Under the pieces are notes generated by a model that was given only the letters and a program-made list of their open reading frames with translations, did not search any database and was not told where the DNA came from. A stretch of 64,000 bases of DNA from Embleya scabrispora (GTDB lineage Bacteria; Actinomycetota; Actinomycetes; Streptomycetales; Streptomycetaceae), in the NCBI RefSeq assembly GCF_002024165.1, contig NZ_MWQN01000001.1, forward strand, positions 1,550,001 to 1,614,000, in the 5' to 3' direction. Below, piece after piece: positions 44,247 through 51,235 of this stretch. The translations under genes and the position numbers were made by a program. How positions within the stretch are numbered: the stretch's first letter is position 1; each line of letters begins with the position of its first letter.

Positions 44247-46436
44247 ATGAAACAGGACGACGCCGGCACCGGCCCAAGCGATACCGAACCGGGCGGCACC
44301 GATCGCGCCCGGTCCGACACCGGATCCGCCGCGGGGACCGAGTTGCGCGATCGTGCCGACGCCGTGTTGCGGGAGCTGGTGGGGGGCGAGGCTCGGCTGC
44401 GGGAGGATCAGTGGCGGGCCGTCGAGGCCCTGGTCGCGCGGCATCGGCGGGTTCTGGTGGTGCAGCGCACCGGGTGGGGCAAGTCGGCGGTGTACTTCGT
44501 GGCCACCGCGCTGCTGCGTGCTCGTGGGGCGGGGCCCACCGTGATCGTTTCGCCGCTGTTGGCGCTGATGCGCAATCAGGTCGACGCCGCCGCCCGCGCC
44601 GGGATCCGGGCCCGCACCATCAACTCGGCCAACGTCGACGATTGGGACGCGGTGCAGGCGGAGGTCGCCGGCGGCACGGTGGATGTGCTTCTGGTCAGCC
44701 CGGAAAGGCTCAACAATCCCGATTTTCGGGACACCGTGTTGCCTAAGTTGGCCGCCACCACCGGGCTGCTCGTGGTGGACGAGGCGCACTGCGTCTCCGA
44801 CTGGGGGCACGACTTCCGGCCCGACTACCGTCGCCTGCGCACCCTCCTGGAGGAGTTGCCGGCGGGCGTTCCGGTCCTGGCCACCACCGCCACCGCGAAT
44901 GCCCGGGTGAGCACCGACGTGGCCGAACAACTGGACCCGACCGGCGACGCGTTGGTCCTGCGCGGCGCACTCGATCGGGAGAGCCTGTCGCTGGGCGTGT
45001 TGCGCCTGCCCGATCCGGCCGAGCGGCTGGCCTGGCTCGACACGCACCTGCCCGAGCTGCCGGGCTCGGGGATCGTCTACACGCTGACCGTCGCCGCCGC
45101 CGAGGAGGTCACCGCGTTCCTGCGCTCGCGCGGCCACGCGGTCGCCTCCTACTCGGGCCGCACCGAGGACGCCGAGCGACGGGTCGCAGAGGCAGACCTG
45201 CTGGCCAACCGGGTCAAGGCGCTGGTGGCCACCTCCGCCCTGGGCATGGGCTTCGACAAGGGCGACCTGGGCTTCGTCGTACACCTGGGCGCCCCGCAGT
45301 CGCCGATCGCCTACTACCAGCAGATCGGCCGGGCCGGGCGCGCGGTGGAGCGCGCCGACGTACTGCTGCTGCCCGGCCGCGAGGACGAGGCGATCTGGCG
45401 CTACTTCGGCTCGCTCGGCTTCCCCGCCCGCGAGCAGGTCGAGCGCACCCTGGCCGCCCTGGAGGGCGCCGGGCGCCCGCTGTCCACGCAGGCCCTCGAA
45501 CCCCTCGTGGAACTGCGCCGCAACCGCCTGGAGCTGATGCTCAAGGTGCTCGACGTCGACGGCGCGGTCAAGCGGGTGCGCGGCGGCTGGATCACCACCG
45601 GCCACCCCTGGGTGTACGACGCGGAGCGCTACGCGCGCGTGGCCGCCGCCCGCGAGCACGAACAGCAGTCCATGCGCGACTACCAGGCCGACGGCACCTG
45701 CCGGATGGAGTTCCTGCGCCGCTGCCTGGACGACCCGGGCGCCGCCCCGTGCGGGCGCTGCGACACGTGTGCCGGGCCGCGCCACGACGCGCGGGTGGAT
45801 CCCGCCTCGCGCGAGGCGGCCCGCGCCGCGCTGGGCCGGCCGGGCGTGGAGGTGGAGGCGCGCCGGATGTGGCCCACCGGCATGGCGGTCACCGGGGTCG
45901 CGTTCAAGGGCCGCATCCCCGACGGCGAGCAGGCCGCGGCGGGCCGGGCCCTGGGCCGCTCCTCCGACATCGGCTGGGGCAACCGGCTGCGCCCGATCCT
46001 GGCCCCCGGCGCACCCGACGGCCCCGTCCCCGACGCCGCGTTCGCCGCCGTCGTCGAGGTCCTGGCCGGGTGGGGCTGGCAGCGGCGCCCCGGAGGCGTG
46101 GTCACCATCGCCTCGCACACGCGCGGCACGCTGATCGACAGCCTGGGCGAGCGGCTGGCCGAGGTCGGCCGGCTGCCCTGGCTGGGGCGGGTGGAATACG
46201 CGCCGGGCGCCGGCGGCCCGGCTCCGCGCAGCAACAGCGCCCAGCGGCTGCGCACGGTCGCCGACGCGTTCGTCCTGCCGCCCGACGTCGCCGAGCGGGT
46301 GGCCGCCCTCGGCGCCCCGGTCCTGCTGGTCGACGACCGCACCGACACGGGGTGGACGCTCACCGTGGCGGCCCGCCTGCTGCGTCGCGCCGGCGCCGTG
46401 CAGGTGTTGCCCCTGGTGCTCATGATGGAGGGGTGA
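44247..46436 (+). CDS. recQ: RecQ-family DNA helicase with C-terminal phosphoribosyltransferase-like domain
   Basis: 729 residues. Helicase motifs: RTGWGKSAVYF (Walker A variant), VSPLLALMRNQV (Ia), VVDEAHCVSDWGHDFRPDY (DEAH), ATTATAN (III), and QIGRAGRAVERAD (VI). A RecQ zinc module follows (CRMEFLRRCLDDPGAAPCGRCDTC). Instead of an HRDC domain, the C-terminal ~150 residues end in VAALGAPVLLVDDRTDTGWTLTVAARLLRRAGAVQVLPLVL, the PRPP-binding VLVDD-x-x-x-TG-x-T pattern of type I phosphoribosyltransferases such as ComF. It unwinds branched DNA in repair; what the PRT-like part does is unknown. A GGGGG run lies just before ATG 44247. Confidence 0.9.
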   Translation: MKQDDAGTGPSDTEPGGTDRARSDTGSAAGTELRDRADAVLRELVGGEARLREDQWRAVEALVARHRRVLVVQRTGWGKSAVYFVATALLRARGAGPTVIVSPLLALMRNQVDAAARAGIRARTINSANVDDWDAVQAEVAGGTVDVLLVSPERLNNPDFRDTVLPKLAATTGLLVVDEAHCVSDWGHDFRPDYRRLRTLLEELPAGVPVLATTATANARVSTDVAEQLDPTGDALVLRGALDRESLSLGVLRLPDPAERLAWLDTHLPELPGSGIVYTLTVAAAEEVTAFLRSRGHAVASYSGRTEDAERRVAEADLLANRVKALVATSALGMGFDKGDLGFVVHLGAPQSPIAYYQQIGRAGRAVERADVLLLPGREDEAIWRYFGSLGFPAREQVERTLAALEGAGRPLSTQALEPLVELRRNRLELMLKVLDVDGAVKRVRGGWITTGHPWVYDAERYARVAAAREHEQQSMRDYQADGTCRMEFLRRCLDDPGAAPCGRCDTCAGPRHDARVDPASREAARAALGRPGVEVEARRMWPTGMAVTGVAFKGRIPDGEQAAAGRALGRSSDIGWGNRLRPILAPGAPDGPVPDAAFAAVVEVLAGWGWQRRPGGVVTIASHTRGTLIDSLGERLAEVGRLPWLGRVEYAPGAGGPAPRSNSAQRLRTVADAFVLPPDVAERVAALGAPVLLVDDRTDTGWTLTVAARLLRRAGAVQVLPLVLMMEG

Positions 46437-47335: not shown

Positions 47336-47704
47336 TCAGGCGGTGAGACCACGCTCGGCGAGCCAGTCGACCAGATCGGTCGTGACCGTCAACGCGTGGT
47401 CCTGAACGAGCTCCGGACTCTGCAGCCGCGTGCGCAGATGTTGCGCGTGGAACGGCTTGATCCCGGAGATCAACTTGCGTACCCCGAACACGTTGCAGAA
47501 CGCCCGGTCGTCACCGGCCGAGAAGGCGCGGTCCCATTCCTGGCGTTCTTCCCCGATCAAGGTCGTGTAGGCGTACCGGTTGAGATAGCCCGACAACATG
47601 TCGATGACAGTGCTACAGGCCCGGTACTGCTGTATTTTCAGCCGGTCCTCCTGGTCGCTGAGGAACCGGTCAAGGAGCTGCGCGATCGACGGCGATTCCG
47701 ACAT
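47336..47704 (-). CDS. 122-residue helical protein, integrase-core-binding-like, unknown function
   Basis: MSESPSIAQLLDRFLSDQEDRLKIQQYRACSTVIDMLSGYLNRYAY continues with LIGEERQEWDRAFSAGDDRAFCNVFGVRKLISGIKPFHAQHL and ends VTTDLVDWLAERGLTA. The order (short helices, FLxxQ, a helix ending in GYLNxYAY, an acidic FCxxFGxxKL segment, and LxxWLxxxG) resembles the SAM-like DNA-binding head found before the catalytic part of tyrosine recombinases and in some SEC-C proteins. There is no catalytic domain. The coding sequence is less GC-extreme than its neighbours and lacks a strong ribosome site. The resemblance is from memory and needs a profile search. The gene converges on the upstream unknown gene with a 15-bp gap. 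Confidence 0.62.
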   Translation of the reverse strand: MSESPSIAQLLDRFLSDQEDRLKIQQYRACSTVIDMLSGYLNRYAYTTLIGEERQEWDRAFSAGDDRAFCNVFGVRKLISGIKPFHAQHLRTRLQSPELVQDHALTVTTDLVDWLAERGLTA

Positions 47705-47800: not shown

Positions 47801-48421
47801 TTACGCGACGCCGGTGAGCGCGCGCACCCGCTCCACGTCGCCGCAGACCGTGACCGACGCCCCGGCCGTGAGCGCCGAGGTCAGGATGCGACCCGCGTCG
47901 GCGCCCTCGGCGAAACCGTTGACCACGACGACGACCGCGGGCCGCCGCAGCGGACGCGAGGCCGGCAGCGACGCGTAGAACACGTCCTTGCCCTCGTCGT
48001 ATTGGCGCCAGTACTGCGCGGCGCCGAACGTCTCCTCGTGCTGCTGCCACGGGTGCGGCCCACCCGTGGTCAGCACCAGGATGGCGCCGGGCTCGGTACC
48101 GGCCTCCAGGAGCGCGTCGACCGCGTCGTCGGCGACGTCGAAGACGTCGTCCGCGCCGGCGGGGATCAGCGTCACGCGCGGCGTCGGCGAGGCGGACAGG
48201 TCGGGGCCGGGCTTGGCCGCACCCGGCTTCGGGGGACCGGGCTTGGCCGGACCGGGCTTGGCCGCCGCACTCGCCTGCCGCGGCACGGCGGGCTTGGGCG
48301 GGCTCGGCTTCGGGCGCGGTCCGGGCTTGGGCACCGCGCCGGACGGACGCGGCACGGACGGGGTCTCTGCTGCGGACGTCGTGTCCGCGGTGTTTTCGGC
48401 AGTCACCGGATTCACAGTCAT
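47801..48421 (-). CDS. Stand-alone domain resembling the C-terminal end of SF1 (UvrD-like) helicases
   Basis: 206 residues. Residues 1-80 are Ala/Pro/Lys-rich and disordered. The rest (about 81-206) reads PRVTLIPAGADDVFDVADDAVDALLEAGTEPGAILVLTTGGPHPWQQHEETFGAAQYWRQYDEGKDVFYASLPASRPLRRPAVVVVVNGFAEGADAGRILTSALTAGASVTVCGDVERVRAL. The run VLTTG-x-x-HP...YW..(F)....VFY....-x-x-L-x-R-PAVVVxxN resembles the last motor subdomain of certain UvrD/DEAD-like SF1 helicases, where it is followed by a GLSRA arginine-finger motif. Here that motif is SALTAGA, so no ATPase function is expected. There is no Walker A. The recognition is from memory and should be tested by profile search. Confidence 0.6.
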   Translation of the reverse strand: MTVNPVTAENTADTTSAAETPSVPRPSGAVPKPGPRPKPSPPKPAVPRQASAAAKPGPAKPGPPKPGAAKPGPDLSASPTPRVTLIPAGADDVFDVADDAVDALLEAGTEPGAILVLTTGGPHPWQQHEETFGAAQYWRQYDEGKDVFYASLPASRPLRRPAVVVVVNGFAEGADAGRILTSALTAGASVTVCGDVERVRALTGVA

Positions 48422-48637: not shown

Positions 48638-51235
48638 TCAATCGTCCACCACCACCCCGTGCTCGATCACCAAAGCTGCCAGCCCCTCCGCGTAGCCCTG
48701 ACCGACCGCCCGCAGGCGCCAGGAGTCGCCGCGCCGATAGACCTCGGCCAGGATCATGACGGTCTCGTCGCCTCCGCTCAACCGGAATTCGGCGAGTCGA
48801 CGGCAGGTCACGGGGTCGACGATACCGACGGTCACCGGTACCTGGGCGAAGGTGGTGCCACTCGTCGCGTCCAACGCGAGCGCGACCACGACCCGACTGC
48901 GGCCGGCCGGCAGCGTGGTGACGTCGATCTCGACCGAATCCGAGCCAGGTTCCACGTCGTTGGTGGTCCCGGTCTGCAGTTTGCCGGCCAACCGCACCGC
49001 GCCGCTGGCGTGTACCGGCTGGTTGAAGAACACCAGGTCGCCGTCGTCGGCCACCCGCCGATCGTCGTCGAGGACGAGGGCCACCGTGTCGCCGTCCACC
49101 TGCGCGGGCGCCCACCACGCGGCCTCGATCCGCACCGTGCCCGCGAACGGGCCCAGATCCTCGATCGTGACCGCCTGCCCCCGGGTCAGCCCGCGCGGCG
49201 GCGCGATCGCCGGCCGCGGCGGCACGGTCGGCGCCGGGCCCGCACTCGCCGACTCCGCCGACACCTCGCCCGACGCCGGGTGTTCCGGCTTCGGCGGCAC
49301 GGACGACACCGGCCCGGGCGACACCGGCACCGTCGGCCGCGGCGGCGTGCGCGTCCCCGAGCCCGGCGGCGCCTGCGGCGGCGGCGGCGTCTGCGGCCCC
49401 GGCACGGGCGGCGGCGTGCTCGGCCCGGCGTCCGGCACCGGCGGCACCTCGGGCGGCGGCGGCAACACGTCCGGGACGGTCGCCTCCAACACCTCGGCGG
49501 CCGACGACCCGGCCGCGACCGGCAGATCGGCCGCGGTCGGCGGCGGCGGGATACTCGGCAGCGTCGCCCCCGTACCCGGCACCGGCGCCGGCGTGGTGGC
49601 GGACCCGGCCCCGGACATCGGCGCGCCCGGCGCGGACTGCGCCTCGGTGACCTCGAACGCCTCCGTCGGCGCCGACGACGCGTCCGGCCCGAACGCCTCC
49701 GTCGCCTCGAAGGCCTCGGTCGGCTCCGCCACCGCGGGCAGCACGTCGGAACCGTCCACCGGGGTGTCGTAGGGCCGGTACGGCCCCGGCGTGAACGACC
49801 CGGCACCGGCCGCCCCCGACGTGCTGGGCCGGGGCAGCAGGAAGCCGCTGGTGGTGCGCGGCATCCCCGGCACGGCAAGCGCCAACGAGGCGGCGGCCAC
49901 CTGGGAGGCCGCGTCGGCCGCGCTGCTGCGCCCGCGCTCCAGGTCGGCGAGCAGCGCCAGGAACACCGGCTCGATCAGCACCCGGATACCGCGCTGCCGA
50001 GCCCAGTAGGTGCGATCCGCGGACTCGTCCGGATCGGCGACCACGAGCACGTCCACCCGGTCGTGGATCCCGGACGCCACGGACAGGTCCGCCCGGGCCA
50101 TCCGACGCTCCAACTCGCCGCGGGTGACCGCGAGATAGCCGTGGAACAGCACCTGTAGACCCGACTCGAGCGGCCGCCCCCGGGCCAGGATGCGCGGCCC
50201 GCCACGACCCTCCTCGACGGTGGAGCGGGCCATCCCGACGATCTCGTCGAGCGCGGTGCGCGGAATCCCCAACTGCGCCGCCACCCGGGTCAGATCGGCC
50301 CGCTCCTCGCGGTCGATCGGGCCGGCGGCGACCATCGAGGCGGCCAGGGCGGTCACGTACAACCGGTCCAGGTCCTTGCGCTGCTCCTCGGAGATGCCCA
50401 GGGAGACCGCGAGTTCGGCGAGGTCGATCGCCTCCTGCGGGGTGATCACCCGGTCCTCCAGGGCCGCGTCCAGCACCGCCAGGTAGCTGTCGGGCCCCTC
50501 CCCCACGCCGGTCGGCGGCCCGTACGCCCGGGCCTTCTCCAGGTACGACACCGCGTCCCGGCGGCGCACCTGCTCGGCCTCCTCGCGGGCGCGCCGGGCC
50601 GTGTGCGCGTCGTCGCGGGTGAACACGCGCGGCGGATCGGCGCTGCGCCGCGGCCAGTTGAGCGAGGCGGCCACGGTCCGGGCCTGCTGCCAGTGCCGGG
50701 CCTCGCCCGCGCCGCGACTCAGGTAGTGCTCCAACAGGCGCGCCGTACCCATCGCCTTGGCCGCCGCGCCGTGTCCGCCGTCCACCGGCACCTCGGCCGC
50801 CTCGCAGCAGGCGAGCAGGGTGAACCTGGGCGCCTCCGGCAGGTGGTGCGGCGCCTCGCGCATCGTGCACACGGTGGTCAGCGGCGGCACCGTCGGCCGG
50901 CCTCGGCGCTGGAACTCGCGCTCGACGAAGCCGATGTCGAAGCGCGCGTTGTGCGCGACCACGACCCGCTGCCGGAACAGGTTGGCCAGCCACGGCGCGA
51001 CCTCGGCGAAGGTCGGGGCGTTGACCACGTCGTCGTCGAACAGCCCGTGGGCCTGGAAGTCGCCGGCGGGACCCTGCGGATCGAGCAGGGTCGTGAAGAA
51101 CTCGGTCACGCGTCCGTCGAGATCGCATTGCGCGATCGCGATCTCGATGATGCGATGTCGATGTGGGGACAAACCCGTCGTCTCCACGGCCACCACCGAG
51201 TAGCCGGGGCATTCGAGGCGATCACCGATGCGCAC
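48638..51235 (-). CDS. Pseudo-DEDDh exonuclease / TerB-like / BRCT-like / TerD fusion protein
   Basis: 865 residues. Domains in order: DEDDh exonuclease fold (about 10-175; GYSVVAVETTGLSPHRHRIIEIAIAQ, VVVAHNARFDIGFV); a helical region (about 245-345) suggestive of TerB; a BRCT-like region (about 365-445; LQVLFHGYLAVTRGELERRM ... RQRGIRVLIEPVFLALL); a Pro/Ala/Thr-rich linker of about 200 residues; and a C-terminal TerD domain (about 690-865; DGDLVFFNQP, GSDSVEIDVTTLP, DETVMILAEVYRRGDSWRLRAVGQGY). Two catalytic aspartates are missing: the DxE motif is Ala16-Val-Glu18, and the last motif HxAxxDA is HGAAAKA (Lys160). The GTG at 51235 has a GGGGGG site. TerD domains bind calcium and act in tellurite and stress responses. 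Confidence 0.86.
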   Translation of the reverse strand: MRIGDRLECPGYSVVAVETTGLSPHRHRIIEIAIAQCDLDGRVTEFFTTLLDPQGPAGDFQAHGLFDDDVVNAPTFAEVAPWLANLFRQRVVVAHNARFDIGFVEREFQRRGRPTVPPLTTVCTMREAPHHLPEAPRFTLLACCEAAEVPVDGGHGAAAKAMGTARLLEHYLSRGAGEARHWQQARTVAASLNWPRRSADPPRVFTRDDAHTARRAREEAEQVRRRDAVSYLEKARAYGPPTGVGEGPDSYLAVLDAALEDRVITPQEAIDLAELAVSLGISEEQRKDLDRLYVTALAASMVAAGPIDREERADLTRVAAQLGIPRTALDEIVGMARSTVEEGRGGPRILARGRPLESGLQVLFHGYLAVTRGELERRMARADLSVASGIHDRVDVLVVADPDESADRTYWARQRGIRVLIEPVFLALLADLERGRSSAADAASQVAAASLALAVPGMPRTTSGFLLPRPSTSGAAGAGSFTPGPYRPYDTPVDGSDVLPAVAEPTEAFEATEAFGPDASSAPTEAFEVTEAQSAPGAPMSGAGSATTPAPVPGTGATLPSIPPPPTAADLPVAAGSSAAEVLEATVPDVLPPPPEVPPVPDAGPSTPPPVPGPQTPPPPQAPPGSGTRTPPRPTVPVSPGPVSSVPPKPEHPASGEVSAESASAGPAPTVPPRPAIAPPRGLTRGQAVTIEDLGPFAGTVRIEAAWWAPAQVDGDTVALVLDDDRRVADDGDLVFFNQPVHASGAVRLAGKLQTGTTNDVEPGSDSVEIDVTTLPAGRSRVVVALALDATSGTTFAQVPVTVGIVDPVTCRRLAEFRLSGGDETVMILAEVYRRGDSWRLRAVGQGYAEGLAALVIEHGVVVDD

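What the first reader, a model, noticed from the sequence alone, without database searches (positions are those of the whole stretch)
48638..51235. Exonuclease domain that has lost two of its five catalytic residues, fused to BRCT-like and TerD domains
The fold-defining parts of a DnaQ-like DEDDh exonuclease are present (VETTGL, HNARFD, HxAxxxA), but the first catalytic Asp is Ala16 (AVE instead of DxE) and the last is Lys160 (HGAAAKA instead of HxAxxDA). Loss of both should abolish two-metal catalysis while keeping a DNA-end-binding shape. Coupling this to a BRCT-like module and a calcium-binding TerD domain over a 200-residue linker suggests a scaffold or sensor that brings a metal/stress signal to DNA ends, rather than a nuclease.
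Basis: partly seen in the sequence, partly recalled or inferred. Interest (0 to 1): 0.75.

Follow-up and report, generated by a model that had tools for sequence, protein, structure and literature searches.

The report
Inactivated exonuclease fused to tellurium-stress domains
A soil-bacterium protein descends from a candidate anti-phage DNA-cutting enzyme, has permanently lost its cutting residues in a whole group of related bacteria, and has gained a stress-sensing TerD domain, so it probably works as a sensor or scaffold and not as a nuclease.

Summary
The gene (48638-51235, minus strand, 865 aa) has a DnaQ/DEDDh fold with Ala16 and Lys160 in place of the first and last catalytic Asp. It is no sequencing error: all seven orthologues (four Embleya, two Yinghuangia, one further genus) have A/G and K there, with drift at His155 (H/T/Y/A) and Asp100 (D/E). 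The 61 related exonuclease domains with both sites readable all keep both Asp. The dead clade has one origin (support 100/99). Of 46 family-conserved columns, only those two changed radically in every member, and codon divergence shows purifying selection. The first 434 residues match PADLOC's candidate anti-phage model PDC-S48 end to end; intact relatives with this layout occur in other actinomycete families. The dead clade also changed its BRCT phosphate-pocket residues (T to H, K to R) and gained a proline-rich linker plus TerD. Its genome keeps an intact DEDDh-BRCT-TerD paralogue. Most likely it is a non-catalytic Ter-type sensor/scaffold using the old nucleotide pocket. That it cannot cut is strongly inferred; what it binds is not shown. 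New variant of a known kind.

The parts
48638..51235 (-). Whole gene, 865 aa, GTG start: pseudo-DEDDh, TerB-like, BRCT-like, Pro-rich linker, TerD
50708..51202 (-). DnaQ/DEDDh exonuclease fold without its catalytic set (A16, E18, D100, H155, K160)
   Evidence: Pfam RNase_T 66 bits; AF2 pLDDT mostly above 90 over this part; VIA Z 20.5 to E. coli epsilon 1j53
51188..51190 (-). Codon GCC, Ala16, in place of the first catalytic Asp
   Evidence: A or G in 7/7 orthologues, D in 61/61 readable intact relatives
50756..50758 (-). Codon AAG, Lys160, in place of the last catalytic Asp
   Evidence: K in 7/7 orthologues
50642..50707 (-). Near-invariant connecting helix containing RHWQQARTVAASLNWP
50222..50509 (-). 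TerB-like helical domain
   Evidence: 15 of 15 homologous segments hit Pfam TerB, best E 5.5e-6; profile hits PDB 2ou3 (tellurite resistance protein, COG3793) E 2.2e-4
49934..50179 (-). BRCT-like domain with altered phosphate-pocket positions (T to H365, K to R408)
49193..49897 (-). Proline-rich disordered linker, fast evolving
   Evidence: pLDDT ~30; pN/pS near 0.8-1 in distant pairs
48641..49189 (-). TerD domain
   Evidence: Pfam TerD 112 bits; PDB 3ibz and 2kxt by sequence
47801..48421 (-). Downstream same-strand gene of unknown function, next to the pseudo-exonuclease in all complete loci but also present in nearly all Streptomycetaceae without it
44271..46436 (+). RecQ helicase with C-terminal phosphoribosyltransferase-like domain, part of the same syntenic block

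Best explanation
The gene encodes a fixed pseudo-exonuclease: a catalytically dead member of the DEDDh-TerB-BRCT (PDC-S48) family that gained a C-terminal TerD domain on a long flexible linker. Shown by sequence: the catalytic Asp pair is replaced in every orthologue, the fold is predicted intact, and the domain is under purifying selection. Inferred: it no longer cleaves, because the two metal sites cannot both form, and the invariant Lys160 probably fills the metal site and neutralises the remaining acids. Inferred and less certain: the retained cleft (ETTG, His63-Gly, HNARF in the 865-aa numbering) still holds a nucleotide or a 3' end, and TerB plus TerD respond to the stress ligand, so the protein couples a Ter signal to nucleic acid or to a partner without cutting.
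For: All seven orthologues have A/G at site 1 and K at site 5; 58 intact DEDHD and 3 DEEHD domains compared, none with K. One origin on the ML tree, 100/99, in 100% of 200 bootstrap trees; sister (93/88) to intact standalone DEDDh proteins. E20, G23, H65 and H97 (P0001 numbering) of the cleft are kept in all seven. pN/pS in the exonuclease part is below that of the linker in every pair where both could be measured well. AF2 gives a confident DnaQ fold. PDC-S48 model covered 5-408 of 411. Precedent for a dead DEDD fold that binds single-stranded DNA/RNA: PML PXL (PMC12934764).
Against: No binding, metal or expression data. The exonuclease domain is net acidic (-3 to -8), within the range of intact kin (-11 to +2), so charge gives no positive sign of nucleic-acid binding. 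BRCT phosphate-pocket residues changed, which argues against end binding through BRCT. The neighbouring genes are shared with genomes that lack the protein, so context does not name a partner. TerD lacks the canonical acidic loop.
Confidence: 0.55

Rival explanations
1. A regulator or decoy of an active relative: the dead protein pairs or competes with the intact DEDDh-BRCT-TerD paralogue or another DEDDh enzyme of the same cell and sets its activity.
For: The genome keeps an intact DEDDh-BRCT-TerD paralogue (G000:C1 5547564-5549396, residues D-E-D-H-D) with the same end domains and no intact full-length PDC-S48 protein. Dead paralogues often regulate active ones (general knowledge).
Against: The paralogue is far away on the chromosome and its exonuclease lies in a separate, distant branch. 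Whether it always co-occurs was not tested, and no interface was tested.
Confidence: 0.2
2. Defence sensor: the ancestral PDC-S48 nuclease was an anti-phage effector and the dead version, with TerB and TerD, now only detects infection or stress.
For: End-to-end PDC-S48 match at 371 bits; Ter systems are proposed to act against phage and xenobiotics with TerB and TerD as ligand sensors (PMC7824862).
Against: PDC-S48 is only a predicted candidate; no defence island was shown around this gene, which lies in a conserved housekeeping-like block.
Confidence: 0.17
3. Still a nuclease, with an unusual metal site or with another domain supplying activity.
For: E18, and in most Embleya D100 and H155, remain; ExoII Glu occurs in relatives that are otherwise intact (DEEHD).
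Against: Both outer Asp that hold the metals are gone in all seven, His155 drifts to T/Y/A, and Lys160 would repel a metal. PXL, with one of four DEDD residues, is inactive in vitro (PMC12934764).
Confidence: 0.05
4. A decaying gene on the way out.
For: Patchy distribution: 7 of 298 Streptomycetaceae genomes.
Against: Open reading frames in all complete orthologues, low pN/pS in every folded domain, one old origin spanning three genera.
Confidence: 0.03

Closest known systems
PADLOC PDC-S48 (phage defence candidate; DEDDh-TerB-BRCT)
   Same: Same domain order over residues 1-434; model covered almost fully
   Different: Catalytic residues lost, BRCT pocket altered, linker and TerD added; defence function is untested for the family in the papers I could search
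Intact actinomycete DEDDh-BRCT-TerD proteins (e.g. L026/L064 in the same genome)
   Same: DEDDh, BRCT-like and TerD in one chain
   Different: Catalytic set intact; no TerB-like domain detected; exonuclease from a different branch of the tree
E. coli DNA polymerase III epsilon (DnaQ), PDB 1j53/2gui
   Same: Same fold, Z about 21, 30% identity
   Different: Epsilon has the full DEDDh set (general knowledge); here D to A and D to K
PML PXL and Exuperantia pseudo-nucleases
   Same: Dead DEDD folds; PXL binds G-rich single strands without cutting (PMC12934764)
   Different: Eukaryotic, unrelated domain context, separate loss
TerD and TerB of Ter stress systems
   Same: Sequence homology of the C-terminal and middle domains
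   Different: Fused to a dead exonuclease; acidic loop of canonical TerD replaced

Membership tests
DnaQ-like DEDDh 3'-5' exonuclease | DnaQ fold / RNase_T profile | tested here: met
   Pfam 66 bits over cut-off 24; predicted fold Z about 21
DnaQ-like DEDDh 3'-5' exonuclease | Five catalytic residues D-E-D-H-D | tested here: not met
   A-E-D-H-K here; A/G-E-D/E-H/T/Y/A-K in the clade
DnaQ-like DEDDh 3'-5' exonuclease | Metal-dependent 3'-5' cleavage | not testable with these tools
   needs an assay
PDC-S48 (PADLOC) | Full-length profile match over DEDDh-TerB-BRCT | tested here: met
   371 bits, 5-408 of 411
PDC-S48 (PADLOC) | Intact exonuclease site as in relatives of the same layout | tested here: not met
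   full-length relatives L069-L078 and L080-L082 have D at both outer sites (one with Glu at ExoII); L079 is cut before site 1
PDC-S48 (PADLOC) | Anti-phage function | not testable with these tools
   candidate family; no paper held names it
TerD family | TerD profile above curated cut-off | tested here: met
   112 bits, cut-off 25.3
TerD family | Acidic calcium-binding loops | tested here: inconclusive
   DLD-type Asp pair kept, GDGDDE loop replaced by PGSDSVE
TerB family | TerB profile above curated cut-off | tested here: inconclusive
   this protein's segment is below cut-off (15.1 of 24.4 bits); 15/15 members hit, best E 5.5e-6; PDB 2ou3 E 2.2e-4
BRCT domain | BRCT profile | tested here: inconclusive
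   not called in this protein; 4 of 10 relatives scanned over the PF00533 cut-off
BRCT domain | Phosphate-pocket T/S-G and Lys | tested here: not met
   T to H and K to R in 6/6; T in 12/13 and K in 13/13 relatives

The most novel reading that the evidence does not exclude
The dead nuclease pocket has become a receptor for the nucleoside-like messenger that Ter systems are proposed to make: Lys160 replaces the metals, the ETTG/HG/HNARF pocket holds the nucleotide, and TerB and TerD read the same stress, giving a one-chain non-catalytic Ter signal receptor derived from a candidate anti-phage nuclease.
Probability: 0.12. Interest if true: 0.8.

Novelty: new variant of a known kind. Interest (0 to 1): 0.5.

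Why it matters
Profile searches call this protein an exonuclease, yet a whole lineage has kept it without the catalytic residues. It is a clean natural separation of function: intact relatives of the same layout, one origin, selective loss of two residues, and a TerD domain gained. It makes the question of what TerB and TerD sense, and what DEDDh-TerB-BRCT proteins bind, testable without nuclease activity in the way.

Tried and rejected
Sequencing error: rejected, seven genomes agree. Pseudogene: rejected by intact frames and low pN/pS. Operon partner: the gene at 47801-48421 sits next to the pseudo-exonuclease in every complete locus, which looked like a dedicated partner, but it occurs in 59 of 61 Streptomycetaceae, next to RecQ and RNase HII, mostly without it. 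Structure search for the TerB and BRCT parts gave nothing separate, because the exonuclease filled the lists; that is no evidence about those folds. The full-length AF2 model was poor (pLDDT 54) and was used only for disorder and secondary structure. Papers: the 2012 Ter survey is not held; no paper names PDC-S48; no open paper on TerD calcium ligands was found. Two whole-genome protein searches failed for technical reasons.

Full report
What is there. The gene at 48638-51235 on the minus strand encodes 865 residues. The window comes from an Embleya-like genome: the best match is Embleya hyalina at 98%. Pfam finds RNase_T at the N terminus and TerD at the C terminus. Codons were read directly: Ala16, Glu18, Asp100, His155, Lys160.

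Is it real and fixed? Seven copies, the window's included, were compared: the window, E. hyalina, E. scabrispora, a fourth genome of the same genus (cut by a contig end), Yinghuangia seranimata, a second genome of that genus, and one genome of a further genus at about 55-60% identity. In a draw of 298 Streptomycetaceae genomes only these seven carry the full-length protein: four of four in the Embleya group, two of three in the Yinghuangia group, one in the third genus. Their five catalytic positions read AEDHK (three), AEDTK, GEEYK (two) and AEEAK. Lys is invariant and the first Asp is always Ala or Gly. Among the other DEDDh domains collected, 58 read DEDHD and 3 read DEEHD; two fragments were unreadable at site 1. 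These relatives were gathered by similarity, so the set is not a random sample of DEDDh enzymes.

One origin. On a maximum-likelihood tree of 69 exonuclease domains the seven form one clade (100/99; one change, in 100% of 200 bootstrap trees; shuffled mean 6.8). The sister group is the intact standalone DEDDh proteins of Streptomycetaceae (93/88). The tree warns of long branches, among them the end branch of the most distant clade member, L037 (0.31).

Selective loss. Of 46 columns conserved in at least 90% of 35 intact kin, 31 are identical in all seven dead members. Most of the 15 departures are conservative or partial. Only the first and last Asp are replaced in every member by an unlike residue; His155 is lost in four of seven. 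Nei-Gojobori estimates against E. scabrispora and the two Yinghuangia give omega 0.07-0.25 for the exonuclease part against 0.49-0.75 for the linker; the closest pair (E. hyalina, very few changes) gives 0.21 against 0.31, and the most distant pair 0.39 against 1.04. The fourth genome gives 0.19 for the exonuclease; its linker is cut off. Synonymous sites in these GC-rich genomes are partly saturated, so the values are rough, but the order is consistent.

Architecture. Ten relatives scanned gave Pfam TerB hits below the cut-off in most and BRCT over the cut-off in four. All 15 homologous middle segments hit TerB (best E 5.5e-6), and their profile hits PDB 2ou3, a COG3793 tellurite-resistance protein (E 2.2e-4), and 2h5n. 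A model of residues ~10-435 built on 32 sequences has mean pLDDT 83.6; its first 180 residues match E. coli epsilon, PolC and DinG exonuclease domains with Z 20-22. The stretch from BRCT to TerD is predicted disordered.

Known family. PADLOC model PDC-S48 covers DEDDh-TerB-BRCT; this protein matches positions 5-408 of 411 at 371 bits, and full-length intact relatives from other actinomycete families score about 400-575 bits. Those relatives came from a draw of 395 genomes of the class, where open frames of 400-450 residues are typical, and none of the fetched ones shows TerD in the part read. PDC-S48 is a computational candidate; I found no experiment on it.

Second change in the same lineage. 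In BRCT domains a Thr/Ser-Gly at the end of strand 1 and a Lys at the start of helix 2 hold a phosphate (general knowledge of BRCA1 and RFC1 BRCT). The intact relatives have T in 12/13 and K in 13/13; the dead clade has H and R in 6/6. Arg may still bind phosphate, so this weakens DNA-end binding but does not exclude it.

TerD. Its closest solved relatives are 3ibz and 2kxt. Aligned with other TerD domains of the genome, the Asp pair of the DLD motif is kept and the GDGDDE loop is replaced. Calcium binding is neither shown nor excluded.

Surroundings. The gene lies between an RNase HII / DUF2510 pair and a block of a short gene (47801-48421), a 122-aa gene (47336-47704), a further gene and a RecQ helicase with a phosphoribosyltransferase-like end. 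In the twelve other Streptomycetaceae loci read, the block is present (RecQ seen in eleven, RNase HII in eleven) and the pseudo-exonuclease is absent. So the locus is conserved and this gene is an addition kept in, or lost outside, three genera. Context does not identify a partner.

How it most likely works. Catalysis by DEDDh enzymes needs two metals held by the acidic residues (PMC12934764). With both outer Asp replaced and Lys in the site, cleavage is very unlikely; I put its absence at about 0.93. The kept cleft residues and purifying selection suggest continued binding of a nucleotide, a strand end or a protein there. TerB and TerD are proposed ligand sensors of Ter systems (PMC7824862). 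The best reading is a non-catalytic coupling protein; the identity of ligand and partner is inference, at about 0.55 as a whole.

Verdict. The DNA-end and calcium parts are not supported. It is a new variant of a known candidate family.

Noticed in passing
window 44271-46436 (+): RecQ helicase with phosphoribosyltransferase-like C terminus matches PADLOC PsyrT at 701 bits over nearly its full length, yet it is syntenic across Streptomycetaceae, so the defence label may over-call a housekeeping helicase.
   Followed up: partly
L070 (same-class genome): A PDC-S48-like DEDDh-TerB-BRCT stretch runs on in frame into a very long protein (open frame 2433 aa), which looks like a DUF4011/helicase-type fusion (the fusion type is from memory of the sequence pattern).
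   Followed up: no
L065 5904-7716: A 218-aa DEDDh protein with Glu at the ExoII site (DEEHD) lies directly upstream of a TerC-like gene, and TerD hits lie a few kb away.
   Followed up: no
L064 3520-5415: Intact DEDDh-BRCT-TerD paralogue in the same genome, about 630 aa, D-E-D-H-D kept.
   Followed up: partly
window 47801-48421 (-): Gene of unknown function, no significant Pfam hit, one match per genome in 59 of 61 Streptomycetaceae genomes.
   Followed up: partly
G000 genome: 23 TerD matches in one genome, an unusually large set to my knowledge.
   Followed up: no
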